NCBI GenBank assembly: GCA_003552985.1
Contig: PUPD01000292.1
Span: 1-46,355, forward strand
From: Spirochaetaceae bacterium
GTDB taxonomy: Bacteria > Spirochaetota > Spirochaetia > DSM-27196 > SLAA01
DNA: 46,355 nt
Reading direction: 5' to 3'
This document shows, piece after piece, positions 2,847-31,197 of the stretch; position 1 is the stretch's first letter, and each line of letters starts with the position of its first letter. Below the pieces are notes generated by a model, which searched no databases, was not told the DNA's origin, and worked only from the letters and a program-made list of their open reading frames with translations. The position numbers were made by a program, and so were the translations under genes.

Positions 2847-4529
2847 ATGCGTACTGCGCTCATAGTGTTGCTGCTGGCGGTCGTCTTTCCGGTGTTCGAG
2901 ACAATCGTCGCAAGCGAAATCAGCGTTCAGATCGAGCCCGGACTTTCGACCCTGTTCATCGACCCGGAGGACACCCCCCGCGCGGCAGCGCGCATCAGCG
3001 TCCGTGACCGCTCGTCCACCACGCGCAACCTGGACATCAGAACCATGCCTCAGAGCGCCCAGGTCTATGTCAACCAGGAGTACATTGGACGCGGCCCGGT
3101 TCGCCTTGAGAACCTCGAGTCCGGAACCTATCGAATTCGGGTCTCCCAGTCCGGCTACTATACGGCGCGCTATACGATCGTGCTTGACGATCCGCGCACC
3201 GCCGTGATCGAGATCGATCTGCGGCGCGTGACCGGTTACCTCTCGCTGTCCTCCAACCGTCCCAACACACAGTTCCTGATCGACGGAGAGCCGGCTGAGT
3301 CTCACTTGGTTGAGCTTCCGGTCGGCACCTATACCCTGCGGGCACGCAAGTTCGGATACCGTGATGCCGAACGTCGGATCCAAGTCAGCGAAAACGCGAC
3401 CACAAGGGTGAGTGCTGAGCTGAGTGAGGCACCGTTCGAGGTACGCCGGTTGAGACTGAGCCGTACACGGCTCAACCCGGCCAATCCCGGCGTTCTCGGC
3501 AGAGTCCAGGCCTCTTTTGAAGCGACCAATGTCGGCACTGCTCTGTTGGAGGTGATCGATGAGGACGACGAGGTTGTGTGGCGCCACCGATTTCCCGAGT
3601 TCGACCGGCGGGACAACTCGGTGACCTGGGCCGGAGTGGATCAGGAAGACCGGCCGGTTCCCGACGGTGCCTATCGACTCAGGCTTACCGGAAGACATCC
3701 GGACGGCACTGAGGCCAATCAGGAGGAGACGCGTCTGCGGGTAGACAGCACGCAGACGATCCGGTACCGCAGCACCTGGAGCGGAGCTCCGGGCCTGTTA
3801 TACGCCGGCAACACCGAGGTCCTCCCGGCGCGGGCGTTTCAGTTCTCCAGTATCGTGCTCGGCCATCGCCGATGGCTTGACGACACATCACGCGCCAGAA
3901 TACCGGTGCAGGCCGCCCTGCGGGTAGGCCTGCCTCTGCAGTTCGAGCTTGGAGCGCAGGCGACTGCCTTTGCGCACGACGAGTTTGAGCGCAACTACAT
4001 CAGCGGCGGAGCCTATCTGCGTAAGCGGTTTAGTCTGCGAGACGATCAGCGGCTGACCGCGGCGCTGACGTTGTCCGGAACAGGACAGAGCTATCCGGAG
4101 GACTCACGCAACCGCGCACCGGATACCGCTACCAACCCTGCCGGCTTCCGCCTCTCGGCGCCGTTTGAGTTGCGGCTCGAGGCGCTCCGCATGGTTCTGG
4201 CGCCTGAGCTCGCGGTTTCGCCGGCGCGGCCGGATTACGATGACGCCCCGCCCGGTGACAGGGACGCCGATCTTGGCGCCTGGGGCTACCTACGGGGCGG
4301 GGTGTATCTCGACCTCGGCGCGTTCCAGACCGGAGCCTCGGTCGCGCTGCGCTCCGAGCCCTTCGATACCGGAGCGCTGCGTCTTGATACTCCGCTGGCT
4401 GCAGGACTGGAGGCTCATGTCATGGTGCCGCGCACGCAGATCGTTCTGTCGGCGTTCGGCGGGGGCGAGTTTGCCGCCCCGGACGATTACTATCTGTTCG
4501 GCGGGTTAGGGCTTGGGATAGTGCACTAA
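2847..4529 (+). CDS. PEGA-domain envelope protein with beta-rich C-terminus
   Basis: Predicted cell-envelope protein of 560 aa. It has a signal peptide (residues 1-23), then two PEGA-type repeats (about 52-105 and 125-190; AQVYVNQEYIGRGPVRLENL and QFLIDGEPAESHLVELPVG). A FlgD-like Ig module follows (about 215-310; RPVPDGAYRLRLTGRHPDG). The C-terminal 230 residues alternate hydrophobic and polar residues like an outer-membrane beta-barrel, but the last residue is His rather than an aromatic. The start at 2847 is chosen for the signal peptide and the promoter just upstream. Its stop overlaps that of the convergent zinc-ribbon gene by 4 nt. Function unknown; PEGA modules are usually surface-associated. 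Confidence 0.8.
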   Translation: MRTALIVLLLAVVFPVFETIVASEISVQIEPGLSTLFIDPEDTPRAAARISVRDRSSTTRNLDIRTMPQSAQVYVNQEYIGRGPVRLENLESGTYRIRVSQSGYYTARYTIVLDDPRTAVIEIDLRRVTGYLSLSSNRPNTQFLIDGEPAESHLVELPVGTYTLRARKFGYRDAERRIQVSENATTRVSAELSEAPFEVRRLRLSRTRLNPANPGVLGRVQASFEATNVGTALLEVIDEDDEVVWRHRFPEFDRRDNSVTWAGVDQEDRPVPDGAYRLRLTGRHPDGTEANQEETRLRVDSTQTIRYRSTWSGAPGLLYAGNTEVLPARAFQFSSIVLGHRRWLDDTSRARIPVQAALRVGLPLQFELGAQATAFAHDEFERNYISGGAYLRKRFSLRDDQRLTAALTLSGTGQSYPEDSRNRAPDTATNPAGFRLSAPFELRLEALRMVLAPELAVSPARPDYDDAPPGDRDADLGAWGYLRGGVYLDLGAFQTGASVALRSEPFDTGALRLDTPLAAGLEAHVMVPRTQIVLSAFGGGEFAAPDDYYLFGGLGLGIVH

Positions 4530-4912
4530 AGGTGAATGTAGATCGCCACCAGCACGAGAAACGCAAGGCCCAGGATCGACATCGTAAGCGCGAACAGCCA
4601 GCCGGGACGCTCCGGGCGTTTTCGTTGCCGATATCGTACGTGTTGGAGCGCCTGGGAGCGATTGCCGGGCGAGCTTCCCGGCGAACGCGGCAGATCGATG
4701 ACCTCGAACTGCCGATCAGGCATGCTCTCGCCGGTGTAGCCGCAATTGGGACAGCCGGCGAGGAAGAGCTGCACCTCCCCGCTGAACTCGCATATCGGAC
4801 ACTTGACCGCGGAAAAGAACCGGCCGCAGTGTGGACAAACCCGGGCGCTGGGGCCTACCGTCTTCCCGCAGTTCTCGCAATAGAAGCTCACACTGTTCGC
4901 CATGCCGTTCAC
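4526..4912 (-). CDS. Zinc-ribbon protein with C-terminal membrane anchor
   Basis: A 128-aa protein with four zinc-knuckle pairs: CENCG, CPHCG, CPIC and CPNCG, forming two zinc ribbons in the first 60 residues. A basic Arg/Pro linker follows, then one C-terminal transmembrane helix (about 105-126, FALTMSILGLAFLVLVAIYI). The ribbons are probably cytoplasmic. It begins with GTG at 4912, whose last bases overlap the upstream TGA (GTGA), indicating coupling to the sensor phosphatase gene; ATG 4903 is an alternative. The tight coupling suggests a function linked to that phosphatase, but nothing in the sequence shows what it is. Confidence 0.8.
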   Translation of the reverse strand: MNGMANSVSFYCENCGKTVGPSARVCPHCGRFFSAVKCPICEFSGEVQLFLAGCPNCGYTGESMPDRQFEVIDLPRSPGSSPGNRSQALQHVRYRQRKRPERPGWLFALTMSILGLAFLVLVAIYIHL

Positions 4913-7900
4913 TTGCGCCGGATCGCCAGCATAGTCAGGTCATCGTACTGTTCGTCTTCCACCAGATGCGTGTATTCGTTGTAGAGCGAGCTCGCATCGC
5001 TCTCAGGTCTCGCATTACTGAAGAACAGGTTGTACTCCTCGAAATGCGCTTTGAGGAAGTCGTCGATCTTCTTGTCCACAGCCACGCGTTGGTCCCGTCC
5101 GGCGCTTGGGTCGCGGTAGAGGCGGAACACCTTCTCCACCGCCATCAGCGCCAGCGTGGTGTTGCTCGCGGTCGGCTCACAGTCGCTGAAATCGAAGGTC
5201 AGCACCTCGTCCGGATCAGGGCTGTACACCCGCTCGAGCGTATAGCGTCCACCAACCTGCACGGCGGCGACGATATCGTGAATACGGGTGAGAGACAGCT
5301 CCTCATCGCCAACCCCCTCTTCGTCGGTAATTGCCTGATAGTTCGGTCCGCGGAAGGAGCGTTTGGCCTCTTCCACGCCGTCGGTGAAGAACAGCGCAAG
5401 ATCGCCGTGCTCAAGCGTGATGCTGATTTCGGGAAAGCCGTTCGGCGCCATGCTGCTTGGAAAGACGCCTGCCGCCGGCGTTTCGGGCATCGACATCTGG
5501 ACCATCCGTCCGCGCGCACGCTTGTACACGTGCAGTTGATTATCGCCTGCGTTGCAGAGAATCATCTTGCCGGTCGCGGCGTTGTAGAGCCCCACGGTCA
5601 AGGCGGCAAACCGGCCCTTGAAGCCGCGCTCTTCAAGCAGGTCATTGATGCGATACACGAGTTTGCTGAGCCGCAGTCCATGCGTCTTCAGCGACCAATC
5701 GCTGAAGAAATCGAGAAAGATCGTCGCTACCTCGACCATGATCAAAGCTGCCGGCACGCCCTTGCCGGCAACATCACATTTGATCAATCCGTAGTGCTGT
5801 TCGTCGAGCTTGCGATAGTCGAAATAGTCTCCTGAAACCCCCTTGGCGCCTTCGTAGTAGCCGAACACCTCAACCTCAGGCAGGTCCTGATAGCCGGTCG
5901 TCATCTTCTGCCCCGAGCTCGTCACATCAAGCGGAATGAACATCTTCTGAACTTCCTTACCCACCGTGAGGTCTTTGCTCGTCTGTGCCGCCTTCACGAG
6001 CCCCTGCGTCATTGAGTTCACCGTGTCGGCCAAGAGCGAAAGCTCGTCCCGGGTACGCACGTTGATCAAATGGTTGTACAGTTTCTCCTTGTCCTCGGTG
6101 TCGCGGATCACCTCCACGCCCTGCACCAGCCGGTTAATCGGAATAACGACGATCGTGGCGAGAATCATTGCGCCGATTACCCCGGCGACCATCGCGCCCA
6201 CCGCCACAATGACGGTGCTGATAATCAGATCACGTGTCGTAGCATCGATCTCCTGCAGGATCAGGTCGGTGGCGACTCCCAGCCGCACCATGCCGCGATA
6301 GTAGCGCGCTTCCTCCGGAACCTCGCCGACCACCCGGAACAGCACCGGTTTATAGAAGATGTACTCGGTGGTCTCCCGGCTCAGGTCGGCGGCGTCGAAC
6401 TCGGGATAGCTGTGAATGCCTCGTGCAACCTCGGCAAGCACCTCGCTCACCCGGCTTTCGAGCTCACCGCGGATTTCGTCGATCTCCTCCAGCTCCGCTT
6501 GCGCTTCCGGCGTATCCATCAATACCAGCTCGCTGATACGGTCGGTGAACTCGTCGATCTGGCGCGGCGTGTTGCCGAGCTCTTCGCGAGCACGCTCGTT
6601 GATCTCCTGCTCGAGCTCCGGAATACGTTCCGATACCGGATCCTCGAGCCGCGACTGACCGAACGGCTGAAACTCCCCGGTATTGATCTCCGGAAGAATC
6701 CTGCGTCCGGCAACCGCTTCGCTGTACTCATCGGTCCCGATTGTCTCGATCGCCGGGTCGTTCGTCGACCAGATATAGTCGAAGTTGGTTGCATCGTCGC
6801 CTCGTCCGGTAACGGTGAGATAGAGCACCTCGTCCATCACCTCAGTCTGGCGGGTCAACTGCGCGAGCTCGATGATGTTGTCCTGTGGACTATCCAGAAG
6901 CTGACCCGACTGGGTGACGAGGCTTTCCAGAAGCACCTCCACGCGCTGCTCCAGGCCGCGTGCGAGTGTGCGCTCCTGACGCTCCAACGCGGTGGAGCCG
7001 AGAAAAAAGGCTACCAACACAACGACCGCAACCACGAGAAGCACAACGAAAAACGCGAACTTAATCCGCAGCCCTACTCCGCGTCTCTTCATCTTCTTGA
7101 TCCTCTCCAGCTTCTGCTGCGACGGCAACGGCTTGCCGGCCAACAGCGCCTTGACTTCCATCTCTAAGAGCCGGGACTCGGCGATCAATCCCGCGACCCG
7201 GGTACCGGAAAACGCCACCACCAGTGCCAAAAGCAACGCCGCACCGGCCATCATGACTTCTGAGGGCGCCAGTCCGAACCGCGCGCGGGGGTCGGCTGCG
7301 AAACGCGGCACGTAGCGCACCGTGTAATTGCCGAAACTGATATGCCCGCTCTCCTCAAACGCAAGGCTCCGCGGCGCAAAATGCACGCCCCGCTGCGAGT
7401 GCCGCAACCCAATCTGGTACTCCCCGGTCCGCACGCGCTCGATCAGGACGTCGCTGATGCGTTGATCGCTTTCCAGTGCGAACTGGCCATCCTCGGCACG
7501 GAAGACATAGTCGTACGGTTCGCTGCCTTCACGGTCGAGGATCACCTCCTCGATCTGTCCTTCAGCCATGAACCCGCGGCCGAGAATCTGCAGGCTGTAG
7601 CGGCCGAAAAGATCCCGGCTACTGGAAATGTTCCAGATCTCGGTGGTCGGGATGAACTTGTTGGTTCGGAACACCAGCGTTCTCGGCTCACCTATGTTGC
7701 CGACATCGTCGATTGGCCTTACGCTCAGCGCGTACAGCCCGTCGTCGATATTGCGACGCGCAATACGCGGCTCACGCGTCAGCACCGTCTCAGGCGGCAC
7801 CGGCACGTCCAGCTCCTCCGGAGCAATTTCGAGCTCAGGGCCGCCCATGCGTGTAAGCGAAACGGAGTACCCATCAATGTGATCGTCATCCGGTGGTTCC

Positions 7901-9489
7901 CAGGACAGTGTGAAGGTGTTCGACAGTAGATACCCGTCATCATCAAGAGGCGGGGGCGCAAACACCACCGGGTCCGGCGGAGTGCGGTCGCGCTCATAGA
8001 AGATGGTCGTGGGAACCGACCAGTTACCGGCGCGGTCCTTGGTGACAATCCGGAAGTACCACGGGCCGTCTTCGTCGGCCTCAAGAGTTACACGCCGGGT
8101 ATCGGGACCGTACCGCGGCTCGAGCGGCACCTCGGCATCCGGATTTCGGCTCCAGACATAGTTGTACGCGGCGATACCTGAGGTATCAGGCGGCGGTTGC
8201 CACGCAATCTCCACCTCATCGCGCCGCGAACGGCCGCCGGCGGTGAAGTTCACCGGGATAACCCGCGGCGGGCTCACGCTCTGGTCAGGCTCCAAGTAGG
8301 TCAGCGCGGTCCGGTTCGGCGCCACCCAGTTGTGCCAGAACACGTGGATACGATCGCCGAAGCGCATCGGCGTTGCAAAGCGTGACGCGCCCGAAATGAG
8401 ACTCAGGCTCTCCTCCATCCAGGTTTCGCCTACCCGTCGCGACACAAAGACGTTGCTGTTACCGCGCGGATTATCAAACCAAAAGATGTAGAGCTCATCA
8501 CGGTCCACGAGGATACGAGGATTGTTCGCTACCTCCAACCGTGTAGTCACCGCTTCCGGTTCCTGGACGAGCTCGCCTTCGTTATCGAGCTCAGCATAGT
8601 ATACCTGCGGTGCTGCGCCCGCAAGCCTCCGTTCCCAGGCAAGCGCCAGCCGCCCGTCTATATTCTCCAGGACCGGACGCTGATTATCGTAGCTGAAGTA
8701 ATCCTCAGCTTCGTTGGGGTCGTAGAACTCGGTTACGCGTCGGGGCTCACTCCAGGTTCGCCCGCTGTCTTCACTGTACTTGTGATACAGCTGGTAATTG
8801 ACGCGCTCGCGCGGATCGACGCTCTGAAACACCACGTGTTCGCGGCCATTCAGGGACGCATGCGTCGGCAGGAAGTTCAGCCCGAGCTCGCGCTGCTCGA
8901 CAAGCGCCTGCAGCTCGCTCCAGTCGCTACCGTCGCTGGAGGTGCTGTACAGGATACTCTGGATCAGCCCGATATTCTGGCTGACGAATAGTAACAGCTC
9001 ACCGTCCTCGGTCTTGAACAGCCGCGGCGAGACGATCGTCGTCTCCGACTGAACCCCGCCGACATCCTCGAAGCTAAGCCCCCGGTCGGTGGAGCGCATT
9101 ACGCGTGTTTCGGTCGCCGAGGTCGCCACCGCCACATAGAGGTGATCGCGGTCGTCGATGCGAGCCGAGAATACAACCGGCGGCGATTCACGCCGGTACT
9201 GTACCGGACCGACGAAGCGTCGCTCGGTTTGCCAGTTGCGACCGTCGACAGTGCGTCGCAGGCTGAGATAGATCTCTCCACGATTGTCCCCGGTGGGCAC
9301 GATCTCCTGGTAAACGACTACCGCGAACTCCTCGCCGACATGGCTTTCGGGAAACCGGGCGTTCTCGGTGTCGACGTTCCTCGGCGGCTCGAAGAACAGC
9401 ATCTCCGCCTCAACCACGACCGCCGAAACGAGGCCGATGAGACATGCGAGGATGAGTAGTTGCAGCCGTCGATCTGCTCTGATCCGCAC
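4909..9489 (-). CDS. Giant membrane sensor with SpoIIE-type PP2C phosphatase
   Basis: A 1526-aa transmembrane protein. It has a signal peptide (1-28), an extracytoplasmic BNR/sialidase-like beta-propeller (about 30-430, with repeats such as YSEDSGRTWSEP and SSDGSDWSE), and two FN3-like modules (about 430-625). A first TM (about 745-770) leads to a basic cytoplasmic loop, a second TM (805-835), a second extracytoplasmic sensor (835-1085), a third TM (1087-1112), HAMP, and a C-terminal SpoIIE/PP2C domain (from about 1185; SGDYFDY, CDVAGKGVPAAL, LFFTDGVEEAK, YDDLTMLAI). It should dephosphorylate a serine/threonine-phosphorylated partner such as an STAS protein in response to envelope signals. 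No STAS or anti-sigma gene lies in the window. The start codon is GTG. It follows the helical-repeat gene by 28 nt and overlaps the zinc-ribbon gene. Confidence 0.88.
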   Translation of the reverse strand: MRIRADRRLQLLILACLIGLVSAVVVEAEMLFFEPPRNVDTENARFPESHVGEEFAVVVYQEIVPTGDNRGEIYLSLRRTVDGRNWQTERRFVGPVQYRRESPPVVFSARIDDRDHLYVAVATSATETRVMRSTDRGLSFEDVGGVQSETTIVSPRLFKTEDGELLLFVSQNIGLIQSILYSTSSDGSDWSELQALVEQRELGLNFLPTHASLNGREHVVFQSVDPRERVNYQLYHKYSEDSGRTWSEPRRVTEFYDPNEAEDYFSYDNQRPVLENIDGRLALAWERRLAGAAPQVYYAELDNEGELVQEPEAVTTRLEVANNPRILVDRDELYIFWFDNPRGNSNVFVSRRVGETWMEESLSLISGASRFATPMRFGDRIHVFWHNWVAPNRTALTYLEPDQSVSPPRVIPVNFTAGGRSRRDEVEIAWQPPPDTSGIAAYNYVWSRNPDAEVPLEPRYGPDTRRVTLEADEDGPWYFRIVTKDRAGNWSVPTTIFYERDRTPPDPVVFAPPPLDDDGYLLSNTFTLSWEPPDDDHIDGYSVSLTRMGGPELEIAPEELDVPVPPETVLTREPRIARRNIDDGLYALSVRPIDDVGNIGEPRTLVFRTNKFIPTTEIWNISSSRDLFGRYSLQILGRGFMAEGQIEEVILDREGSEPYDYVFRAEDGQFALESDQRISDVLIERVRTGEYQIGLRHSQRGVHFAPRSLAFEESGHISFGNYTVRYVPRFAADPRARFGLAPSEVMMAGAALLLALVVAFSGTRVAGLIAESRLLEMEVKALLAGKPLPSQQKLERIKKMKRRGVGLRIKFAFFVVLLVVAVVVLVAFFLGSTALERQERTLARGLEQRVEVLLESLVTQSGQLLDSPQDNIIELAQLTRQTEVMDEVLYLTVTGRGDDATNFDYIWSTNDPAIETIGTDEYSEAVAGRRILPEINTGEFQPFGQSRLEDPVSERIPELEQEINERAREELGNTPRQIDEFTDRISELVLMDTPEAQAELEEIDEIRGELESRVSEVLAEVARGIHSYPEFDAADLSRETTEYIFYKPVLFRVVGEVPEEARYYRGMVRLGVATDLILQEIDATTRDLIISTVIVAVGAMVAGVIGAMILATIVVIPINRLVQGVEVIRDTEDKEKLYNHLINVRTRDELSLLADTVNSMTQGLVKAAQTSKDLTVGKEVQKMFIPLDVTSSGQKMTTGYQDLPEVEVFGYYEGAKGVSGDYFDYRKLDEQHYGLIKCDVAGKGVPAALIMVEVATIFLDFFSDWSLKTHGLRLSKLVYRINDLLEERGFKGRFAALTVGLYNAATGKMILCNAGDNQLHVYKRARGRMVQMSMPETPAAGVFPSSMAPNGFPEISITLEHGDLALFFTDGVEEAKRSFRGPNYQAITDEEGVGDEELSLTRIHDIVAAVQVGGRYTLERVYSPDPDEVLTFDFSDCEPTASNTTLALMAVEKVFRLYRDPSAGRDQRVAVDKKIDDFLKAHFEEYNLFFSNARPESDASSLYNEYTHLVEDEQYDDLTMLAIRRK

Positions 9490-9517: not shown

Positions 9518-12500
9518 TCAGATCCCCAGCCGCGAGCTTATGCGGCGGTGCAAACGCTGCAACGGTGGATACGCGGCGTTGGCATCGTCCTGCATCAGAT
9601 TTTGCACGATAGAGTATGCCTGAGCAACATTGCCCTGCACGAACAGCGCCTCGGCACGGCGGTACTGCTGCTCCGCGGTTGAGGACAGCGCCACGGTCGC
9701 CTGCCCGCCGGTGCGGATCCGAAGCTCATCGAGCAGCGCCTGCGCCACGCTGTTTTGCGGGTTCAACTCGAGCGCCTCTTCAAGCAGCTGCATCGCGGCA
9801 CGGTCCTGCCCAAGACCGCCACCGGCTATCCCCTGTGCCTGTGCCAGCAGCTCGTTCGACTGTTCTTCCTGTGCCGCCGTGACCGGATCGGGACGGATGC
9901 CGAGCTCGATCTCCAACTCTACGATCATGTCCTCCAATCCGGGATAGTCGGGATTGATCTCATGCAACACCTCGAGCTCGGTCAGCGTGCTCATCGGATC
10001 CACGGCATCGCGCTGTGCGACCACGTCCTCAAACCGGCGTTCAAACACCCGGTCGAAGTTCTCACCTTCACGAAACTCGATAATACGCAGCTGCAGGAGT
10101 CGCGCTTCCCAGTTGTTCGGTCGCACCGCGATCACGTTCTCGAGATTACGTTCGGCGCGGTCCAGGTATCGCTCCGACTCGTCCGCAGCGTCGTTCTGAT
10201 ACAACTCACGCCCGCGTTCGAAATCATCCTGCGCGATACTCAAGTAGTTCGAAAGTATCGGAAACAACGGGTCCGCCTCGGTGAGCGTGCGTTCGTCCTC
10301 GAAGTTCAGCGCGGCGTTCACCAGACCCAGCAGGCGCTCGATCTCGGCGTTTTCGGTTACGTTCGTCAGCTCCCACAGCCGCCGGGCCTCCAGGAGCTCC
10401 TCCTGCGCGGCCAGATACTCTTCCTCGTTGTAGAGCTGGTTGGCCGCCTGAATCCGTTGGCGCACTTCCTGCACTATACGTTGGTTCTGCGCTTCCTGGA
10501 TCTCCACGCCCAGTGCCACGATGCGACGGTCGATCTCCTCTCGAAACTCGGGATCATCCTGCAGCTCCAGCGCGTCGTAAAACCTGCTACGCGCCTCTTC
10601 CCAGAGCTCGCGGGCGCGTTCCACGTCCAGGTCGGCGATCGCCTGTTCGGTCTGCGCGAGGAGGTCTTCGCCTTCAGCGCGAAGCTCCATCGACCGAGCA
10701 AGATAGCCCTGACTACGTTCCAGCGCCGCGACTGCCTGCACCGAGAAAGAGTCCACTAGATCGGCGAGCTCCTGCATGCGTTCAATCCAGATCTCAACAC
10801 CCGGCTCACCCCGAACCTCCTCACCGGCGGTGTTGAGATGCTCAGCATAACCGCGCACCCTCGGCCCGAGCTGGTCAAGCTGCGGCAACAGCGGCTCCAG
10901 CAATTCACGCGCCTGCGCCGGATAGCTGAGAACCAGCGGCTCGATCTCTTCGTCCTCCGGCAGCAGGTCATCCTCGGGGAGCTCCAGCTGCGGCAGGTCG
11001 TGCGGGTCCATCTCGGCCGGCGCGGGCAGCTCCTGCCCAACATCCGGCGTAACCGCCGCGCCGGGTGCCTCAAACCCCGGCGGAAGCTCACGGCCTTCCA
11101 GGTAGGCGATAGCGAGCTCGTAATCATCTGCGATTGCTGCAAAGTTCCCGGCGGCATCGCTATACTGAAGATCAGCCAGCGCGACCAGCGTTTCACCCTC
11201 GTCCCGCCGCAGTCGCTGCTCGTACTCGGCAAGCCGAGTGCGTGTGGCGCTCACAACCTCTTCGCTCCTCGCGGTGCGCAGCTCGGCAAGCTCGGTTCCC
11301 AGGAGCTCGGCCCGCCCCTCGGCCAGCTCGAGTCGCTGCCCGGCCGCCCTGCGCCCGCCGGATAACTCCTGAAGCCCCCCGAGCAGCACGACCCGCCGCT
11401 GCTCATAGAGCTCACGCGGATCAGTGGCTTCGGAGGGCTCCACCAGAGGAGCGACCCGCGCCATGGCAAGCGAGCGCGCAACGTCATGAAAGGCTCGTGC
11501 CTGCTCGCGCTGCAGCTGCGCCTCCAGGAAATAACGCGCAACACCGATACGAATGCCGCCCATAAGCTCCAGCAGCGCTTCGCGATCGTCAGGCATGAGC
11601 AGCTCGCCGGGCGCGTCGATCTCCAGCTCAACGCCGGCATCTTCTGGATCGCCGTGGGCGGCGCCGCCGGAGCGCCGCAATGTGGCGGCAACCACTGTCT
11701 CGAAGTCGCGCTCGGCCTCCAAAAAGCGTGCATCCGCCTCGATGTAACGCTCCTCGTCCAGCTGATCGAGGCCCGCGCTGATCCGCTCGCGCGCCACCTC
11801 TTCCAAAGGCTCACGAAACTCGCTGATTGCCTCATCGAGCATCAGCGAGGTTGCCCCGAGCACTCCCTGATAGCGCCGTTGCTCGAAACTCCCGACCGAC
11901 AGGATTCGCAGAAAGTTCACGTGCCAGTCCACCGGCTCGTCCGGAAAGTGGTCGGCCACCTCGTCGCGCGCCGCAGCGGCTTCATCGGCAGCTTCGGCCA
12001 GGGCCTCCTCCAGCACCACTACCTCGTCAAGGGCCGTGCTTAGGGCACGCTGAGCCTGTGCCAGGCGCTCGCTGGTTCGCTCATCCGGATAGCGTTGCGC
12101 CTCATCCACTGCGGCACGGACCAGCTCTACCCGCGTGATGACGGCCTCGGTCCGCGCGATAAGCTCCTCGCGCAGGGAGGCGATGCGCTCGCCGAACGCG
12201 TCGGCGAACCCGCGCTCCTCGAAGACCCCTCGGCGAATTTCGAAGCCTTCTTGATAGCGTTCGAGCGCCTCCGCGTATCGACGTTCCTCGAGCAGACCGG
12301 CGGCATCGCGTAGAATTCGGATTACCATCTCGCGGTCGTAGGCAAGCTGGGCGATGGCACGGGCACTCTCCAGTTGCTGTCGTACCTCGGGATTGGGATG
12401 CGCTTCCAGTCTCTCCATCTCCTCTATGATCGACAGCGTAGTCTCAATGTCCTCCGGTGACTCGTCGAGGTGGTCGAGCAGCCGCTCAAATAGCTCGTTA

Positions 12501-12739
12501 TAGTCGGTCCGTACCGCCCTGATGCGGCGCAGGAGGCGCTCGGCCTCGTCTATCCTGTCCGGCTCGGTATCGATTATGTCGTGCAGGACCACCACTGCTT
12601 CGTTGTAGCGGCCCTCGGCGATGAGATCCTCGGCCATGGCGATTGGATCTTCGGGACGGCCCGCGCCGAACACAGGTTGCCCGCTGACTACGAGGAGAAC
12701 GCAGAACGCTGATGCTATGGCGAATCGCCGAAGACTCAC
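9518..12739 (-). CDS. Exported helical-repeat (TPR-like) protein
   Basis: A long exported protein (1073 aa), almost entirely helical and rich in Glu, Ala, Leu and Arg. Recurrent TPR-like units such as AEDLIAEGRYNEAVVVLHDI, YAEALERYQEGF and AMQLLEEALELNPQNSVA alternate with coiled-coil stretches. The GTG at 12739 is preferred over the GTG at 12784: it directly precedes a clean signal peptide (SLRRFAIASAFCVLLVVSG) and has GGAGG 12 nt upstream. A -10-like TATTAT lies at 12791-12786. It is first in an operon with the sensor phosphatase (28-nt gap), so it may be a periplasmic scaffold or partner for that protein's external part. That role is inference. Confidence 0.75.
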   Translation of the reverse strand: MSLRRFAIASAFCVLLVVSGQPVFGAGRPEDPIAMAEDLIAEGRYNEAVVVLHDIIDTEPDRIDEAERLLRRIRAVRTDYNELFERLLDHLDESPEDIETTLSIIEEMERLEAHPNPEVRQQLESARAIAQLAYDREMVIRILRDAAGLLEERRYAEALERYQEGFEIRRGVFEERGFADAFGERIASLREELIARTEAVITRVELVRAAVDEAQRYPDERTSERLAQAQRALSTALDEVVVLEEALAEAADEAAAARDEVADHFPDEPVDWHVNFLRILSVGSFEQRRYQGVLGATSLMLDEAISEFREPLEEVARERISAGLDQLDEERYIEADARFLEAERDFETVVAATLRRSGGAAHGDPEDAGVELEIDAPGELLMPDDREALLELMGGIRIGVARYFLEAQLQREQARAFHDVARSLAMARVAPLVEPSEATDPRELYEQRRVVLLGGLQELSGGRRAAGQRLELAEGRAELLGTELAELRTARSEEVVSATRTRLAEYEQRLRRDEGETLVALADLQYSDAAGNFAAIADDYELAIAYLEGRELPPGFEAPGAAVTPDVGQELPAPAEMDPHDLPQLELPEDDLLPEDEEIEPLVLSYPAQARELLEPLLPQLDQLGPRVRGYAEHLNTAGEEVRGEPGVEIWIERMQELADLVDSFSVQAVAALERSQGYLARSMELRAEGEDLLAQTEQAIADLDVERARELWEEARSRFYDALELQDDPEFREEIDRRIVALGVEIQEAQNQRIVQEVRQRIQAANQLYNEEEYLAAQEELLEARRLWELTNVTENAEIERLLGLVNAALNFEDERTLTEADPLFPILSNYLSIAQDDFERGRELYQNDAADESERYLDRAERNLENVIAVRPNNWEARLLQLRIIEFREGENFDRVFERRFEDVVAQRDAVDPMSTLTELEVLHEINPDYPGLEDMIVELEIELGIRPDPVTAAQEEQSNELLAQAQGIAGGGLGQDRAAMQLLEEALELNPQNSVAQALLDELRIRTGGQATVALSSTAEQQYRRAEALFVQGNVAQAYSIVQNLMQDDANAAYPPLQRLHRRISSRLGI

Positions 12740-12884
12740 GTGGGTGTCAGCCCTCCACCCCTTTTTTAGGCCCACTTTTATCACTATAATACTACACGAA
12801 ATATCGGCATAACTACCGCCGAGGCCAAACCTACGACGGGCAGTTGCGCTCCCCCGGTGTAGATAATCACATATTCTGGCGATA

Positions 12885-12890
12885 TATTAT
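12885..12890 (+). promoter_or_regulatory. Candidate -10 box of the UPF0164 gene
   Basis: TATTAT lies in an AT-rich stretch and ends 10 nt before ATG 12901. No good -35 is visible and there is no Shine-Dalgarno before the ATG. It resembles the other promoter-adjacent starts in the window but is one of the weaker examples. Confidence 0.3.
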
Positions 12891-12900
12891 ACGGGTTGCC

Positions 12901-14253
12901 ATGAAGATACTGTCGGCGTTTTTCCTGCTCTTAATCATCGCCGCCTCTCCGGCGTCGGCTGACACCTTCGCCGACGCCTACGGCACGATCGCCGACTTCT
13001 TCGGAACATCGGCCGCGCGGCGCACCGGTCTTACCGCCTTCCCGGTACTTACTATACCGGTCGGGGGGCGTTACGAAGGGCTCGGCACCGCCTATACGGC
13101 GGTCGCGCGTGACACCGGGTTCTTCGACGCCAATCCGGCGGCGAGCGCCTCGATCGAACGCACCGAGCTCGCGCTTCAGCATACCAACCTGATCGCCGAC
13201 GCAAACATGGAGTCTATCGCCTACACGAGCCGGTTCACCAACTTCGGGTTCGGTGCAGCCGGCAAGTTTCTGCACGTTCCGTTCACCGAGTACGACGCGT
13301 TCGGCGACCAGGTCACCACAATGCGGTATACCGAGAGCGTCGCGGGCGTAAACGCGTCGTACCGCCTGTTCAACTCGTTCTACCGTTACGGGCTCGCCGT
13401 CGGCGCCAATATCAAGGGCGCCTATCGGCACATACCGGATCGGATCGAGCCCGATCAATCGGCCTTTGCCTATATGGCTGACTTCGGCCTGCTCACCCGC
13501 TTCAATTTTCTGAAATTTCACGCCTCACGCGAACGTAACTTCTCGCTTGGGCTCACCGCGCGCAATATCGGGCCCCCGGTCCAGGACGATCCCCTGCCGA
13601 GCACGCTCACCGCCGGGCTCGCCTACCGCCCGCTGCGGCCGGTTGAGCTTTCGTTCGATTTTCAGCTTCCGATCCAACCGTTTACCGATCTTCCGGCCGA
13701 GCCGCCCGCCTATGCCGGCGGCGTATCCGCCCTGGTAACCGAGTTCTTCGGGCTGCACACCGGGTTTCTCCTGAAAGGCGGCAACCCGCGCGCAACAATC
13801 GGGGGCATGCTGGATTTCGAAAGCACGCGCTTCGTTGCCAACTATACCCTGGACATGACGACGCAGGTCGGGACGGTCGATCGATTCAGCGTCGAAGCTG
13901 CGTTCAAGTTCGGCGACCGCGGGCGGGCCGAGCGCGCGCAGCGAGCCGAGGAGTACTACCTCGAAGCGTTGCTTGCGTTTGCCGACGGCGACCTCACCCG
14001 CACCGTCGAGCTCTCCGAACGGGCGCTCGAGGTCGACAGTGCCTTCACCCCCGCCGAGGAAACGCTCAAGTCCGCCGAACGCACGCTCGCGATGCAGCGG
14101 CGGCTCGAAGCAATCCCGCTCGATGAGACTATACCGGTACCCGATTTCGACGAGGATTTCGAAGAAGAGCTCGAAGAACGCTTCGAGCACCAGCAAGATC
14201 CGGACGAACCGTTCAACGACGATATAGAGGTTGAAGGCCCCGCCAACGCCTGA
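12901..14253 (+). CDS. UPF0164-family outer-membrane protein with TPR tail
   Basis: A 450-aa exported protein with signal peptide MKILSAFFLLLIIAASPASA. The body (about 40-350) begins with a pattern typical of UPF0164/FadL-like spirochaetal barrels: GGRYEGLGTAYTAVARDTGF followed by NPAASA. Many amphipathic beta-strands follow. The last 95 residues are helical and contain a TPR-like unit (YYLEALLAFADGDLTRTVEL) and a very acidic end. In Treponema the family is considered an outer-membrane, FadL-like group with possible roles in uptake of hydrophobic nutrients; the substrate is unknown. The start at 12901 is fixed by the signal peptide. It is divergent from the helical-repeat operon. Confidence 0.8.
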   Translation: MKILSAFFLLLIIAASPASADTFADAYGTIADFFGTSAARRTGLTAFPVLTIPVGGRYEGLGTAYTAVARDTGFFDANPAASASIERTELALQHTNLIADANMESIAYTSRFTNFGFGAAGKFLHVPFTEYDAFGDQVTTMRYTESVAGVNASYRLFNSFYRYGLAVGANIKGAYRHIPDRIEPDQSAFAYMADFGLLTRFNFLKFHASRERNFSLGLTARNIGPPVQDDPLPSTLTAGLAYRPLRPVELSFDFQLPIQPFTDLPAEPPAYAGGVSALVTEFFGLHTGFLLKGGNPRATIGGMLDFESTRFVANYTLDMTTQVGTVDRFSVEAAFKFGDRGRAERAQRAEEYYLEALLAFADGDLTRTVELSERALEVDSAFTPAEETLKSAERTLAMQRRLEAIPLDETIPVPDFDEDFEEELEERFEHQQDPDEPFNDDIEVEGPANA

Positions 14254-18886: not shown

Positions 18887-19648
18887 TCAGCTTCGCGATA
18901 TCCGCAGCAGAGCTACCGAAATATTATCGGCTCCACCGGCGGCGTTAGCTGAGCCGACAAAGTCGCGAGCGGTCTCGGCGAGATCGGCGTTGCGCTCAGC
19001 AAGCGATGCCGCGATACCACCGTCGCCGAGCATGTCGCTGAGTCCGTCGCTGCACAGCAGCAGCAGGTCGTTTTCGGATTCCAGCGCCTCGATCGCAAAG
19101 AAGTCCAGGTAGAACTGATCCTCGCTGCCGAAACAGTTCACGATTATGTTACCGGGAATCGTAGGATCCCCGAGCTGTTCGCGCAATGTGTGGTCTTGGG
19201 TGAGCTGGCGCAACCCTTCATCGTTGTAGCGGTACAGCCGCGAATCGCCTGCGTGCAGACAGTACAGGGCACCGTTATAGCCAAACACACCGGTATAGGT
19301 GGTAGACATGCCTGCGCGGCCCGACCCGAGCCAGCTCTTCTTGATTAGATCGGTGTTGACCTCCAGGGCCGCAGTGCGAACGGCGTATGCGAGGTTCTCC
19401 GGATCCAGTCCCTCCTCGAACCCCTCCAGCCGGCTCAGCATCTGGCCGGCAACGATCTTGCTGGCCTGATCGCCGCCGGGGGCACCGCCCACACCGTCAG
19501 CCACCCCCACGAGAAAGCGATCATCCGGAAACTCGACTCGCGCGGTCTTCTCGTCGTCCCGAATCAGGCGCGACCCGATTGCGACCACGTCTTCATTCTT
19601 CCTGCGTACCTTACCACGATTGCATGAAACCGCGATCTCAAGTGCCAT
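18887..19648 (-). CDS. PP2C-family serine/threonine phosphatase
   Basis: A 253-aa cytoplasmic Stp1/PrpC-type phosphatase requiring Mg or Mn. The metal-binding motifs are all present: VRRKNEDVV near the N-terminus, VGVADGVGGAPGGDQAS, CLHAGDSRLYRY, LLLCSDGLSDML and GGADNISVALL. It should reverse Hanks-type kinase phosphorylation; no such kinase is in the window. Start ATG 19648 lies 2 nt downstream of the EAL gene stop, with AAGGAGAG inside the end of that gene, so the two are translationally linked. Confidence 0.92.
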   Translation of the reverse strand: MALEIAVSCNRGKVRRKNEDVVAIGSRLIRDDEKTARVEFPDDRFLVGVADGVGGAPGGDQASKIVAGQMLSRLEGFEEGLDPENLAYAVRTAALEVNTDLIKKSWLGSGRAGMSTTYTGVFGYNGALYCLHAGDSRLYRYNDEGLRQLTQDHTLREQLGDPTIPGNIIVNCFGSEDQFYLDFFAIEALESENDLLLLCSDGLSDMLGDGGIAASLAERNADLAETARDFVGSANAAGGADNISVALLRISRS

Positions 19649-19649
19649 A

Positions 19650-21236
19650 TCAGCTCTCCTTCACGGCCCAAGCGTTGAAATCGGCTGCGAACAGTTCCGC
19701 AGGAACCGCCTTGCCGAAATAGTATCCTTGAAAAGTTCTGCAACCCAGGCCCCATAGCACGCTGATCTGTTCGAATTGCTCCGCCCCTTCTACCACGACT
19801 TCTATGCCGAGCCCGGTGGCCATATTGCAGATTGCGCGGACGATACTCATCGTCGGGGGGTCACTCAGCAACTCGCCCAGGAATGTCCGGTCCAGCTTGA
19901 TCGCCCGAACCGGGAAGTGCCTGATATAGCTCAGCGACGAATACCCGGTGCCGAAGTCATCGATGGCGACTTCTATGCCCATCTCGCGCATTCGCCGTAT
20001 TTTGTGCAGCGAATCCTCCGGGTCGTCCATGATGCTGCTTTCGGTAATCTCCAGGCGAAGATTCGGCGGACCTACCTGGGCGCGGTTCAGCGCGCGCTCG
20101 ATGTTAGACAAGAGATGCTCGTCGCGGAACTGCCGCGGGGAGACGTTGAGCGAAACGTATAGCCGGTCCAACCCCTCGTCGGTACGGGAGGCCCACTCGG
20201 CGAGAATGTCCGACACGGTGTACAGCGACCAGGTCCCGATCGGAACGATCAGTCCACTCTCCTCCGCCACCGGAATGAAGCGGTCCGGCGCGACTAACCC
20301 GTGGCTCGGATGATGCCAGCGAATGAGCGCCTCAGCGCCCACCACCTGCGCCTGCGCCTCGGACCGATTACAAGCGGTTACGCGCATCAGCGGTTGGTAA
20401 TGCAGCTCGAACTGCCGGTCTATCTCTGCGATCGCTTGTTCTTCGAGTGCTTTGATAATGCTGTTCTGCAGCTCTATCTTCTCGATGACCGCCACGCTCA
20501 TCTCGGACTGATACATCGTGAACACGCGCCGGGCGCGTAGACTGTTCGACAGCGCGATGTCGGCATTTCGAAGCAGGCTGCGCTTGGTTGTCCCGTGATC
20601 GGGATGCCGGGCAGCCCCAATGTAACACCCGAACGAAAGCGTATACTGCGGCAAGGTATAGCGCCTCGCGATCACCTCATGGAAGCGTTCGGCGTGATAC
20701 TCAATCACCTCGGTGTCGGAGTGGTGAAGCAGGAGCACGACAAACTCGGCTTCGCGCGTATGGTACAGGCGCCCCTCAGCCGGCAGACACTCCTTCAGAC
20801 GTTCACCAGTCTCGTAGATGATCCAATCGGTGAGGCTGGGGTCCAAAGAGCGCTTGGCATCCTCAAAGCTCTGGTCAAGCGCTACGATGTATACCACGAT
20901 GTCGCTTGGCTCGGGCGAGCTGTGCGCTTGATTAAGAAACCCGTTCAGCTCGTTGTCGAGCACCGCGTGATTGGCCAACCCGGTCTTCTCGTTGTAGATG
21001 AGACGCTTCTCGAGCTTCTGTTCGCGACGCTTCCGCGCTTGAATCTGCTCCTGCAGCTCCTGCAGCGACTGGGCGGTTTCGTCGAGTTGCTGCTCGAGAT
21101 GCTGTTCGCGGGTACGAATCGCAAGGTAGCGGTGCTTGATGTCCTCGGGGATATCATGGCGCCCAAAAACATCCTCCAGCTCCCTGACGGTTCCGGAGGG
21201 GAGGTCATGCTCCCCGATCAAGTCCCTCAGACTCAT
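19650..21236 (-). CDS. Degenerate GGDEF plus EAL domain protein (c-di-GMP phosphodiesterase)
   Basis: A 528-aa cytoplasmic protein. It has an N-terminal coiled coil (about 40-80), a GGDEF-like domain (about 85-250) and an EAL domain (about 270-520). In the first domain the signature is replaced by REAEF (YHTREAEFVVLL), so cyclase activity is unlikely. The EAL domain keeps its catalytic residues: EALIRW, LNVSPRQF, LEITES, IDDFGTGYSS, IKLDRTF, EGAEQFEQ and QGYYFGK. It should hydrolyse c-di-GMP, with the first domain possibly sensing GTP. ATG 21236 has AGGGAG upstream. It is transcribed with the PP2C phosphatase gene and possibly with the PTS-IIC-like gene. Confidence 0.92.
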   Translation of the reverse strand: MSLRDLIGEHDLPSGTVRELEDVFGRHDIPEDIKHRYLAIRTREQHLEQQLDETAQSLQELQEQIQARKRREQKLEKRLIYNEKTGLANHAVLDNELNGFLNQAHSSPEPSDIVVYIVALDQSFEDAKRSLDPSLTDWIIYETGERLKECLPAEGRLYHTREAEFVVLLLHHSDTEVIEYHAERFHEVIARRYTLPQYTLSFGCYIGAARHPDHGTTKRSLLRNADIALSNSLRARRVFTMYQSEMSVAVIEKIELQNSIIKALEEQAIAEIDRQFELHYQPLMRVTACNRSEAQAQVVGAEALIRWHHPSHGLVAPDRFIPVAEESGLIVPIGTWSLYTVSDILAEWASRTDEGLDRLYVSLNVSPRQFRDEHLLSNIERALNRAQVGPPNLRLEITESSIMDDPEDSLHKIRRMREMGIEVAIDDFGTGYSSLSYIRHFPVRAIKLDRTFLGELLSDPPTMSIVRAICNMATGLGIEVVVEGAEQFEQISVLWGLGCRTFQGYYFGKAVPAELFAADFNAWAVKES

Positions 21237-29088: not shown

Positions 29089-31197
29089 ATGTCTCGAAGC
29101 GTTCGTATCCCGGCTGTTGTTGTCGCTGCGGTGGTATTGCTGCCGGTCTGGATCCATGCCCGCGATGCACGCGAGGCGCGCGTCATAGTCAACTCGAGTC
29201 ATCTCGGCGCCGTCACCGCGATAGCGTCGCAGCCGGTAACCGGACGGGTGTTCACTGCGGGTGGCGACGGGACGGTTCGGGTGTGGCAGGGGGAGGATCG
29301 CCGGCTGCAACGCATTCTGCCGGCGTCACCCTTCGAGGTGCGCGCGCTAACCGCAGCAAACAACCTTTCGTTACTAGCCACTGTCTCACCCGAGGGCCGC
29401 GACGGGTACCGCCTTGGAATCTGGAACTGGCGCACCGGCCGAGAAATCTATCACTTCCGGCTCGACAATGAGCCCCTTACGGTACAGTTCTCGCCCCGCG
29501 GAAACTTTCTGGTTTATACGCTACCCGAGTTCCGAAGTCTGCGTTTCGTGAACCTCCGCACCGGCGAGCACGAACAGCGTGTCCAACGGGGGTTTGGAAT
29601 CGTCTCGTTCGTCACCATCGCCACCAGTGAAGAACGCATCATGACCTACATTCCCGCCGGCGGCCGTATTCAGTACTGGGACCTCCAGAGCGGCGATGAG
29701 ATTCAACGCATTACCACAGAGCTCGATCTAGAGGAGTTGACGCTGCTGGCAAACCGCCGCCACGGCGTCGGTGCCAACAGCGACAGCCTGGTGGTGATCG
29801 ATATACTGAACGGCGAAACCCGCGCCGAACGGCGGCTTCGCGACGTGGTCTCGATTCGACGCGATCCCGAGACTGACCAGATTGGGGTGGTGAGACGCAT
29901 CTCCGGAGGCTATGAGTTTACGCGCTGGGAGTACGGTGACGGACGCCTGCGCCGTCTGGATACACCCCGCTCCCTCGGCCCCGATTTCGTAGATTTTGCG
30001 TTTCACCAGGGCCGCGTGCTGGTTGCGAAGCGCGACGGAACGATCACATACTTCTACCCCTTCAGCCGCCTGGACCGCGTTTTCGCGTACCCCCGCACCC
30101 AGCCGGTTCAGAGCACAATGGCGGTAGGTCGCAGCCTGCATCTCACCGTCGGCGACGAGCTGATTACGATCACTTCGGACTTTTTCACCCGCGGGCACGC
30201 GGAGGTAAGTGAAGCCCGCTTTTTGCAGTATGAGCGGATGAAGCTGCCCTACGATAGTGACACCGAGCTCACCCCGCTCGCACCCGGCGAGTACATCGTA
30301 TGGACAAGCGCGCTCGAGGACTCGCAGCTGTATCTCCTCGATACGCGCCGCGGTCGGCTTTCCTCCACCGGAATAACCGTACCGAACGAAGCGCGTCACG
30401 TGGTCGCGTCTGACGACTCCGATGCGGTTTATATCCTTGACGATACCGGGGTCATCGCTCGCTACGAGCTGGAAAGCGGTGAGTCTGAAACAGTCTACTC
30501 GGCTCCCGGTATTCAGACCTTCGCCCGATTGGGACCGCGCAGACTACTTATCGCCGGCGGCAGCGACCACGTGTTCGATACACCCGCCGTGACGGTGGAT
30601 ACCCAAACCGGCGAAACCGTACCGGTGAACGTCAGCGGATTTTATATCCTAGATATGGCCTACGATGCGCACGGCAACACGCTCTATGTGGCCGCCCTCG
30701 AACGAGACGGACCGCGCGGCGCAGTACGCACCACCCTGACCTCCTACCGGGATTTCGGCCTTCGCGGAGGCACGCGCCTGTATTCCCACCGTGGTGAGGA
30801 TCTCGGTGCCACCGTCATCTTTGACCCGGTACGCAGGCGGGCATACAGCACAATCGGGTTTCACGGCGTTCAGATCTTTGACGCTCTGGAAGGGGTAAGC
30901 GCGCTCGAGGCAACCGTGGAGACCCCCGAGCGGCTCTATGCATACCAGGACCGGGTGTTCGGCCTCAACCGCAGCGGCTCGCTGTCGGTTTGGCATGCCG
31001 ATACTACCGAGCACCTACTGGACTTCCACGCCTTTTACGACGGCAACTGGGCGATCACCACCCCGCGCGGACAGTACGCCCTCGCGCGACCGGATCTGGC
31101 CGACGAGTATCTAAGTCTGATTCCGGGCCGAACGGCACCTGCCGACCTGCGCTCGCTGGAGCTGAGCATCCCGATTCGCGAGCCGGCACGCCGGTAG
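29089..31197 (+). CDS. Exported WD40-like beta-propeller protein
   Basis: A 702-aa protein with a signal peptide (about residues 1-25, VRIPAVVVAAVVLLPVWIHA). WD40-like blades follow, clearest near the N-terminus (SHLGAVTAIASQPVTGRVF, TAGGDGTVRVWQG, LGIWNWRTGREIYHF) and less regular further on. A C-terminal part includes NWAITTPRGQYALARPDLAD, seen in other exported propeller proteins. CAGGAGA precedes ATG 29089. Likely periplasmic or surface-associated. It is co-directional with rseP (41-nt gap) and may be read through from it. Function unknown; a scaffold or sensor role is only a guess. Confidence 0.75.
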   Translation: MSRSVRIPAVVVAAVVLLPVWIHARDAREARVIVNSSHLGAVTAIASQPVTGRVFTAGGDGTVRVWQGEDRRLQRILPASPFEVRALTAANNLSLLATVSPEGRDGYRLGIWNWRTGREIYHFRLDNEPLTVQFSPRGNFLVYTLPEFRSLRFVNLRTGEHEQRVQRGFGIVSFVTIATSEERIMTYIPAGGRIQYWDLQSGDEIQRITTELDLEELTLLANRRHGVGANSDSLVVIDILNGETRAERRLRDVVSIRRDPETDQIGVVRRISGGYEFTRWEYGDGRLRRLDTPRSLGPDFVDFAFHQGRVLVAKRDGTITYFYPFSRLDRVFAYPRTQPVQSTMAVGRSLHLTVGDELITITSDFFTRGHAEVSEARFLQYERMKLPYDSDTELTPLAPGEYIVWTSALEDSQLYLLDTRRGRLSSTGITVPNEARHVVASDDSDAVYILDDTGVIARYELESGESETVYSAPGIQTFARLGPRRLLIAGGSDHVFDTPAVTVDTQTGETVPVNVSGFYILDMAYDAHGNTLYVAALERDGPRGAVRTTLTSYRDFGLRGGTRLYSHRGEDLGATVIFDPVRRRAYSTIGFHGVQIFDALEGVSALEATVETPERLYAYQDRVFGLNRSGSLSVWHADTTEHLLDFHAFYDGNWAITTPRGQYALARPDLADEYLSLIPGRTAPADLRSLELSIPIREPARR

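What the first reader, a model, noticed from the sequence alone, without database searches (positions are those of the whole stretch)
4909..9489. Giant sensor phosphatase with two extracytoplasmic input regions
One protein combines a sialidase/BNR-like propeller, two FN3-like modules, a second periplasmic sensor, HAMP and a SpoIIE phosphatase. Two separate external inputs on one phosphatase are unusual. The output is presumably partner-switching, but no STAS or anti-sigma partner is adjacent.
Basis: partly seen in the sequence, partly recalled or inferred. Interest (0 to 1): 0.6.

Follow-up and report, generated by a model that had tools for sequence, protein, structure and literature searches.

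The report
Spirochaete envelope-spanning sensor phosphatase
This very large bacterial sensor protein, found across most spirochaetes including the syphilis agent, reads conditions in the cell envelope through two separate sensing parts, and its outer part is inherited together with a periplasmic partner and an outer-membrane pore protein, which points to a signalling line running from the outer membrane to the cell interior.

Summary
ORF 4909-9489 (-), 1526 aa, carries a seven-bladed propeller, two FN3 modules plus a third beta domain, TM1, TM2, a folded second periplasmic sensor, TM3, HAMP and a SpoIIE/PPM phosphatase whose metal ligands are invariant (AlphaFold2 pLDDT 89). It is no oddity but a core protein of Spirochaetales and Treponemataceae; the syphilis orthologue is TP0854.

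A periplasmic TPR gene directly upstream is present in 72/72 genomes with the propeller form, 0/7 genomes whose phosphatase lost the propeller (at least 3 independent losses) and 0/20 without the phosphatase. The divergent outer-membrane UPF0164 (FadL-like) gene is present in 71/75, 0/7, and in no other class member above cut-off. In one genome all three are unlinked yet retained.

Best reading: a trans-envelope system (outer-membrane barrel, periplasmic TPR, sensor phosphatase), with the second sensor able to work alone. The propeller lacks the sialidase catalytic set, against the published virulence-sialidase suggestion. STAS output is inferred only: no STAS or kinase gene is adjacent, and no RsbW-like kinase passed cut-off in TP0854's genome. 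New variant of a known kind.

The parts
4909..9489 (-). Giant sensor phosphatase, 1526 aa (orthologue of T. pallidum TP0854)
   Evidence: ORF; Pfam; orthologues
9409..9489 (-). Signal peptide (residues 1-27)
   Evidence: hydrophobic core 9-27 after a basic n-region
8260..9402 (-). Seven-bladed BNR/sialidase-like propeller (residues 30-410)
   Evidence: Pfam BNR_2; AF2 model, 28 strands; Foldseek
7660..8259 (-). Two FN3 modules (residues 411-610)
   Evidence: Pfam fn3 29.8 bits on the sub-fragment; profile match to titin FN3 modules; AF2
7285..7653 (-). Third all-beta periplasmic domain (residues 613-735), no family match
   Evidence: AF2 pLDDT about 90; conserved G/D/H/R columns; no Pfam family over cut-off
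7201..7257 (-). TM1 (745-763), followed by a basic cytoplasmic loop (764-811)
   Evidence: hydropathy; 12 K/R vs 4 D/E in 768-810
7000..7056 (-). TM2 (812-830)
   Evidence: hydropathy
6226..6993 (-). Second periplasmic sensor (833-1088), Cache/WalK-like with helical insert 953-1021
   Evidence: AF2; WalK profile match in the T. pallidum orthologue 943-1160, E 2e-7; WalK structure 9a5d in Foldseek
5986..6213 (-). TM3 (1093-1111) and HAMP (about 1112-1168)
   Evidence: Pfam HAMP subthreshold in the window protein, over cut-off in orthologues
4912..5892 (-). SpoIIE/PPM phosphatase (1200-1526); metal ligands D1221, D1239, D1370, D1516/D1517
   Evidence: Pfam; invariant 66/66; Foldseek to Rv1364c RsbU, RssB, SpoIIE
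4966..5349 (-). Family-specific expansion of the PPM fold (within residues 1381-1508), partly next to the alpha3/4 docking loop
   Evidence: TDG to DDxT span 152-182 aa vs 58 in ordinary paralogues; 68 in a distant relative without the insert
9518..12784 (-). Periplasmic TPR protein, 1088 aa, same strand, 28 nt upstream of the phosphatase start
   Evidence: signal-like N-terminus; co-occurs with the propeller 72/72, 0/7, 0/20
12844..14253 (+). UPF0164 outer-membrane barrel (FadL/PorV-like), divergent
   Evidence: Pfam 161.9 bits; co-occurs 71/75, 0/7
4526..4912 (-). Zinc-ribbon protein with C-terminal hydrophobic segment; start overlaps the phosphatase stop (GTGA)
   Evidence: relative in the flanks of 40 of 80 loci

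Best explanation
This is a conserved inner-membrane sensor phosphatase of spirochaetes that works in a three-part, envelope-spanning module. The periplasmic ectodomain (propeller, two FN3, beta domain) reads the state of a periplasmic TPR protein and, through it, of an outer-membrane UPF0164 barrel. A second, Cache/WalK-like periplasmic sensor gives an independent input and suffices alone in lineages that lost the first. Both inputs converge through TM3, HAMP and a helical linker on a SpoIIE/PPM phosphatase, which most likely dephosphorylates a STAS protein encoded elsewhere. SHOWN: the predicted domains and topology, invariant catalytic aspartates, operon-like order, co-occurrence and co-loss. 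INFERRED: physical contact of TPR, barrel and propeller; what is sensed; linker-driven dimerisation; the STAS substrate.
For: Structure: both halves modelled at pLDDT 89. Metal-binding Asp invariant 66/66. TPR is present in 72/72 genomes with the propeller form, 0/7 propeller-less, 0/20 without the phosphatase, and is directly upstream in 70/72. Of the two exceptions one is a contig break; in the other (G296) phosphatase, TPR and UPF0164 lie on contigs C76, C71 and C37 and all are kept. UPF0164: 71/75 with the propeller, 0/7 without, none over cut-off in class genomes lacking the phosphatase. Propeller loss happened at least 3 times on supported branches; all 3 independent pairs change the TPR gene in the same direction. 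In distant families of the phylum a 715-842 aa ORF lies directly upstream of the phosphatase (G041, G043, G055, G062), with UPF0164 elsewhere in G043 and G055. Propeller-less forms keep TM2, sensor 2, HAMP and PPM. A HAMP/linker-controlled PPM dimer is the published general mechanism (PMC12143880).
Against: TPR and the propeller-coding 5' end are neighbours, so one deletion could remove both. Three independent pairs cannot reach significance (p 0.25). Four Treponema genomes keep TPR and propeller without UPF0164, so the barrel is not strictly required. No physical interaction was tested. STAS output rests on family membership only; the genome's only detected STAS gene sits beside another SpoIIE, and T. 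pallidum shows no HATPase_c_2 protein over cut-off. The PPM expansion may mean a different substrate.
Confidence: 0.55

Rival explanations
1. The ectodomain is a receptor for a soluble periplasmic ligand, for example an envelope glycan, and TPR and UPF0164 merely share its locus and fate.
For: The best whole-propeller structural matches are carbohydrate-active: GH145, PL24/25, PLL fucose lectins. Conserved NQRP and WER motifs (269-272, 285-287; W285, E286, R287 invariant 67/67) could line a pocket.
Against: TPR and UPF0164 track the propeller even where unlinked (G296). Propellers of such folds can also bind proteins (general knowledge).
Confidence: 0.25
2. Co-loss reflects deletion of one contiguous block (UPF0164, TPR, 5' end of the phosphatase gene), not functional coupling.
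For: The three coding segments are contiguous in most genomes. In propeller-less genomes the upstream side is occupied by other genes, in several by the same DUF4912-like pair, while the downstream MinD-like gene stays in G273.
Against: TPR-only or propeller-only losses should then be common, yet none was seen among 79 family genomes tested. Four genomes show UPF0164 gone while TPR and propeller remain, so losses are not all one block. G296 keeps all three unlinked.
Confidence: 0.2
3. Output is not classical RsbU-RsbV-RsbW partner switching: the substrate is another phosphoprotein, or a STAS protein without an RsbW-type kinase.
For: The PPM domain is expanded by about 95-120 residues, partly next to the alpha3/4 docking loop that sets specificity in SpoIIE and RsbU (PMC11418112). 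No STAS or kinase gene adjacent. No HATPase_c_2 protein over cut-off in T. pallidum despite 3 SpoIIE and 3 STAS.
Against: The SpoIIE-type catalytic core is intact; 33 of 34 genomes examined hold STAS genes; characterised regulators of this type mostly act on STAS proteins.
Confidence: 0.35
4. It is a secreted or surface virulence sialidase, as proposed for TP0854 from structural modelling.
For: Sialidase-like fold; TPANIC_0854 listed as modelled on sialidases (PMC5956850; PMC10600179).
Against: Seven rather than six blades by strand count. R45 at the RIP-like position is kept in only 34/67; no conserved Tyr nucleophile; the Glu-like position is Gln (Q270) in 63/67 (by-eye correspondence). Predicted topology is periplasmic, anchored in the inner membrane. 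The family is widespread in sediment and other environmental spirochaetes.
Confidence: 0.03

Closest known systems
T. pallidum TP0854 (TPANIC_0854), annotated SpoIIE family protein phosphatase
   Same: Orthologue: same domain order, full length (1533 aa), TPR gene upstream, UPF0164/FadL genes (TP0856/0858) divergent; detected in proteomes (PMC10600179)
   Different: UPF0164 expanded to five copies. Published only as a SpoIIE annotation and a sialidase-like virulence candidate; I found no paper on a sensing role
B. subtilis RsbU / SpoIIE and M. tuberculosis Rv1364c RsbU domain
   Same: PPM catalytic core, metal ligands, alpha-helical linker before the PPM
   Different: Membrane sensor with two periplasmic inputs; 95-120 residue expansion of the PPM; no linked STAS or kinase
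WalK/NblS-type histidine kinases
   Same: Periplasmic Cache/PAS-like domain, TM, HAMP; weak profile matches
   Different: Output is a Ser/Thr phosphatase; large extra ectodomain in front; helical insert in the sensor
Bacteroides hybrid sensors such as BT4663 (periplasmic propellers plus Y_Y_Y)
   Same: Propeller ectodomain followed by beta-sandwich modules on a membrane sensor (4a2m among Foldseek hits)
   Different: BT4663 is a hybrid two-component system for heparin; here a phosphatase, a second sensor and TPR/UPF0164 partners
PorV/PorQ and FadL outer-membrane proteins
   Same: UPF0164 matches PorV_fam (76.7 bits, cut-off 90) and is called FadL in T. pallidum (PMC12369335)
   Different: Below the PorV cut-off; here tied by co-occurrence to a sensor phosphatase; type IX secretion not tested

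Membership tests
SpoIIE/RsbU-type PPM phosphatase | PF07228 over the curated cut-off | tested here: met
   85.4 bits vs 25; the match stops at profile position 139 of 192 because of the expansion
SpoIIE/RsbU-type PPM phosphatase | Metal-coordinating Asp set (VSGD, DVAGKG, TDG, DD-T) | tested here: met
   D1221, D1239, D1370, D1516, D1517 invariant in 66/66
SpoIIE/RsbU-type PPM phosphatase | Phosphatase activity | not testable with these tools
   needs biochemistry
RsbU-RsbV-RsbW partner-switching system | Linked STAS substrate gene | tested here: not met
   none among the window proteins scanned; the only STAS in the genome is next to the other SpoIIE
RsbU-RsbV-RsbW partner-switching system | RsbW-type HATPase_c_2 kinase in the genome | tested here: inconclusive
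   the two short own-genome hits are not RsbW; a 446-aa HATPase_c_2 plus cNMP protein exists; none over cut-off in T. pallidum; incomplete MAG
RsbU-RsbV-RsbW partner-switching system | Dephosphorylates a STAS-P | not testable with these tools
   needs biochemistry
GH33 sialidase | Propeller with Asp boxes | tested here: met
   STDRGLSF and SEDSGRTW; 1-3 boxes (strict pattern) in 66 of 67
GH33 sialidase | Arg triad, Tyr nucleophile with Glu | tested here: not met
   R45 34/67, no conserved Tyr nucleophile, Q270 in 63/67 at the Glu-like position; correspondence by sequence, not superposition
GH33 sialidase | Six blades | tested here: not met
   28 strands, i.e. seven blades by strand count; target TM-score about 0.67 to GH145 and 0.59-0.66 to PLL lectins vs 0.3-0.5 to sialidases
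Cache/PAS-like extracytoplasmic sensor | Long N-helix, alpha/beta core, C-helix into TM and HAMP | tested here: inconclusive
   AF2 topology fits and WalK profile matches, but no Pfam Cache family matched
UPF0164 (PF03687) for the neighbour 12844-14253 | Score over curated cut-off | tested here: met
   161.9 bits vs 21.4

The most novel reading that the evidence does not exclude
Spirochaetes have a dedicated signalling line from the outer membrane to a cytoplasmic Ser/Thr phosphatase: UPF0164/FadL-type barrel, periplasmic TPR bridge, propeller sensor phosphatase with a second, independent periplasmic input. In T. pallidum this would make the FadL vaccine-candidate proteins part of a sensory system with TP0855 and TP0854 rather than only transporters.
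Probability: 0.42. Interest if true: 0.8.

Novelty: new variant of a known kind. Interest (0 to 1): 0.6.

Why it matters
In what I could search, no function has been assigned to this gene, to its TPR neighbour or to the pairing of UPF0164 barrels with either, although the phosphatase is nearly universal in Spirochaetales and Treponemataceae and is kept in the reduced T. pallidum genome. The co-loss pattern turns three separate unknowns (a sialidase-like virulence candidate, an orphan TPR protein, the FadL outer-membrane proteins under vaccine study) into one testable hypothesis: a sensor of the outer membrane. It also argues against treating TP0854 as a sialidase. For signalling it offers a natural experiment, since lineages lost one of two inputs while keeping the other and the output.

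Tried and rejected
Linker hypothesis for 833-1088: rejected, confidently folded. Sialidase enzyme: rejected on residues. Anti-sigma candidates L010 and L011 in the own genome: L010 is an ORF antisense to another gene, L011 a histidine-kinase fragment. Possible resemblance of the PPM expansion to an RsbW domain: no Pfam match at E up to 5, dropped. Tight obligate link of UPF0164 to the propeller: weakened by four Treponema exceptions, checked at the locus. NCBIfam gave no name. Independent-pairs test of co-loss: right direction in 3 of 3 but without power.

Full report
WHAT IS THERE. The ORF is exactly as given: 4909-9489, minus strand, 1526 aa, GTG start. Pfam finds BNR_2 (73-274, 45 bits over a cut-off of 31.4), fn3, HAMP (subthreshold) and SpoIIE (1230-1378, 85.4 bits over 25). 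Hydropathy gives a signal peptide and three TM segments (745-763, 812-830, 1093-1111), with a strongly basic loop between TM1 and TM2 (12 K/R vs 4 D/E), as expected for a cytoplasmic loop.

STRUCTURE. Two AlphaFold2 models were built from alignments of 67 and 66 orthologues. Residues 25-770 (pLDDT 89.3) form a 28-strand propeller, i.e. seven blades by my strand count, then two FN3 sandwiches, a third all-beta domain (613-735) and TM1. Foldseek places the propeller nearest GH145 (BT3686), PL24/25, PLL fucose lectins and sialidases. Residues 745-1526 (pLDDT 88.9) form the TM1-TM2 helices, an alpha/beta domain at 833-1088 with a three-helix insert (about 953-1021), TM3, HAMP, a helical linker and the phosphatase. 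The phosphatase is nearest Rv1364c RsbU, RssB and SpoIIE; WalK also appears, in line with a WalK-like sensor and HAMP. The T. pallidum orthologue matches the WalK profile over 943-1160 (E 2e-7).

CATALYTIC STATUS. The PPM metal ligands are invariant in 66/66, so an active phosphatase is expected. The distance from the TDG to the DD-T motif is 152-182 residues in the sequences measured, against 58 in ordinary spirochaete RsbU paralogues and 68 in a distant member of the family. The class therefore carries a folded expansion, part of it next to the alpha3/4 docking loop that sets substrate choice in SpoIIE and RsbU (PMC11418112). The propeller keeps Asp boxes but not the sialidase catalytic set: R45 at the RIP-like position in 34/67, Gln in 63/67 where a Glu would be expected, no conserved Tyr nucleophile. 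This correspondence is by sequence, not by superposition.

DISTRIBUTION. 40 of 41 genomes (the window's own plus relatives, out to the same order) have a match. All 80 named loci are spirochaetes: Spirochaetales, Treponema, Breznakiella, Gracilinema, Sediminispirochaeta. In a phylum sample of 297 genomes it is class-wide but missing from the roughly 1-Mb genomes I take to be Borreliaceae, and distant full-length forms occur in other families. Genome G089 (1,139,633 bp) is T. pallidum by size and gene order; its copy lies beside three UPF0164 genes and is TP0854, annotated 'SpoIIE family protein phosphatase' and modelled on sialidases by others (PMC5956850, PMC10600179).

THE PARTNERS. Upstream on the same strand lies a TPR gene with a signal-like N-terminus (9518-12784). 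In 72 class or order genomes with the full-length protein it is present in 72; in 7 genomes with a propeller-less version (748-914 aa, keeping TM2, sensor 2, HAMP and PPM) it is present in none; in 20 class genomes without the phosphatase, in none. It is the immediate upstream neighbour in 70 of 72. One of the other two is a contig break (G110); in the other (G296) the phosphatase and TPR genes are unlinked, each inside its contig. The divergent UPF0164 outer-membrane barrel gene is present in 71 of 75 full-length genomes and 0 of 7 propeller-less ones, and no class genome without the phosphatase has one over cut-off (one 19.5-bit fragment in G331). In G296 it lies on a third contig (C37). In four distant relatives (G041, G043, G055, G062) a 715-842 aa ORF directly upstream occupies the TPR position, detected as a TPR homologue by profile in three of them (G041, G043, G062).

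EVOLUTION. On a tree of the cytoplasmic part, propeller loss needs 4 changes, at least 3 of them forced by supported branches; T. pallidum (full length) sits beside propeller-less relatives. Four Treponema-family genomes have lost UPF0164 but keep TPR and propeller, with other genes (in three, the same DUF4912-like pair seen near propeller-less copies) on the upstream side. This fits, without proving, an order in which the barrel goes first and the TPR and ectodomain follow.

MECHANISM. The most economical reading is a three-part trans-envelope sensor: barrel, TPR, propeller ectodomain, with a second Cache-like input that works alone after the first is lost. HAMP and a helical linker feed a PPM dimer, the mechanism shown for RsbU and modelled for HAMP-containing phosphatases (PMC12143880). 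The substrate is most likely a STAS protein, but this rests on family membership. No STAS gene is adjacent; the one in the genome sits beside the other SpoIIE; the sampled genomes hold STAS genes (33 of 34); and T. pallidum shows no RsbW-type kinase over cut-off.

LIMITS. TPR and the 5' end of the phosphatase gene are neighbours, so single deletions can explain part of the co-loss. Three independent pairs give p = 0.25 at best. The window genome is a 305-contig MAG. Interaction, ligand and substrate are untested.

Noticed in passing
L125:4193-5314 (G014), similar ORFs in G020, G025, G030, G034, G005-G007, G038: Free-standing ORFs of about 250-420 aa match TM2, sensor 2 and TM3 of this protein; the one read (L125) shows no recognised output domain: orphan copies of the second sensor.
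   Followed up: partly
L123, L124, L151, L152 (propeller-less loci); L167-L169: The same two-gene pair (a DUF4912-like protein of about 230 aa and a 530-aa protein that looks like a GH57-type hydrolase) sits upstream of several propeller-less phosphatases and in three of the four genomes that lack UPF0164. Family names are by eye.
   Followed up: partly
L006:1012-2349; L154, L156, L157: A conserved 435-461 aa protein with HATPase_c_2 and (in L006 by Pfam) a cNMP-binding domain; a candidate switch kinase in spirochaetes, not found in T. pallidum.
   Followed up: partly
L122:4398-5534 and L123:8220-9365: A MinD/FlhG-like ATPase gene lies directly downstream of the phosphatase in T. pallidum and in a propeller-less relative.
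   Followed up: no
window 18887-21236: A PP2C-type phosphatase gene lies next to a GGDEF-EAL gene, a possible second phosphatase/c-di-GMP unit in the window.
   Followed up: no
window 32967-33734: Ribosomal protein L9 reads 255 aa, about 100 residues longer than the two L9 domains that match (1-147).
   Followed up: no
window 29089-31197: A 702-aa protein with WD40-type propeller repeats beside a site-2-protease-like (M50, PDZ) gene, i.e. a second propeller protein near an envelope-stress protease.
   Followed up: no
G120, G234, G287, G245, G221: TPR orthologues in some Treponema-family genomes are broken or only partly matched, possibly early decay of the partner gene.
   Followed up: no
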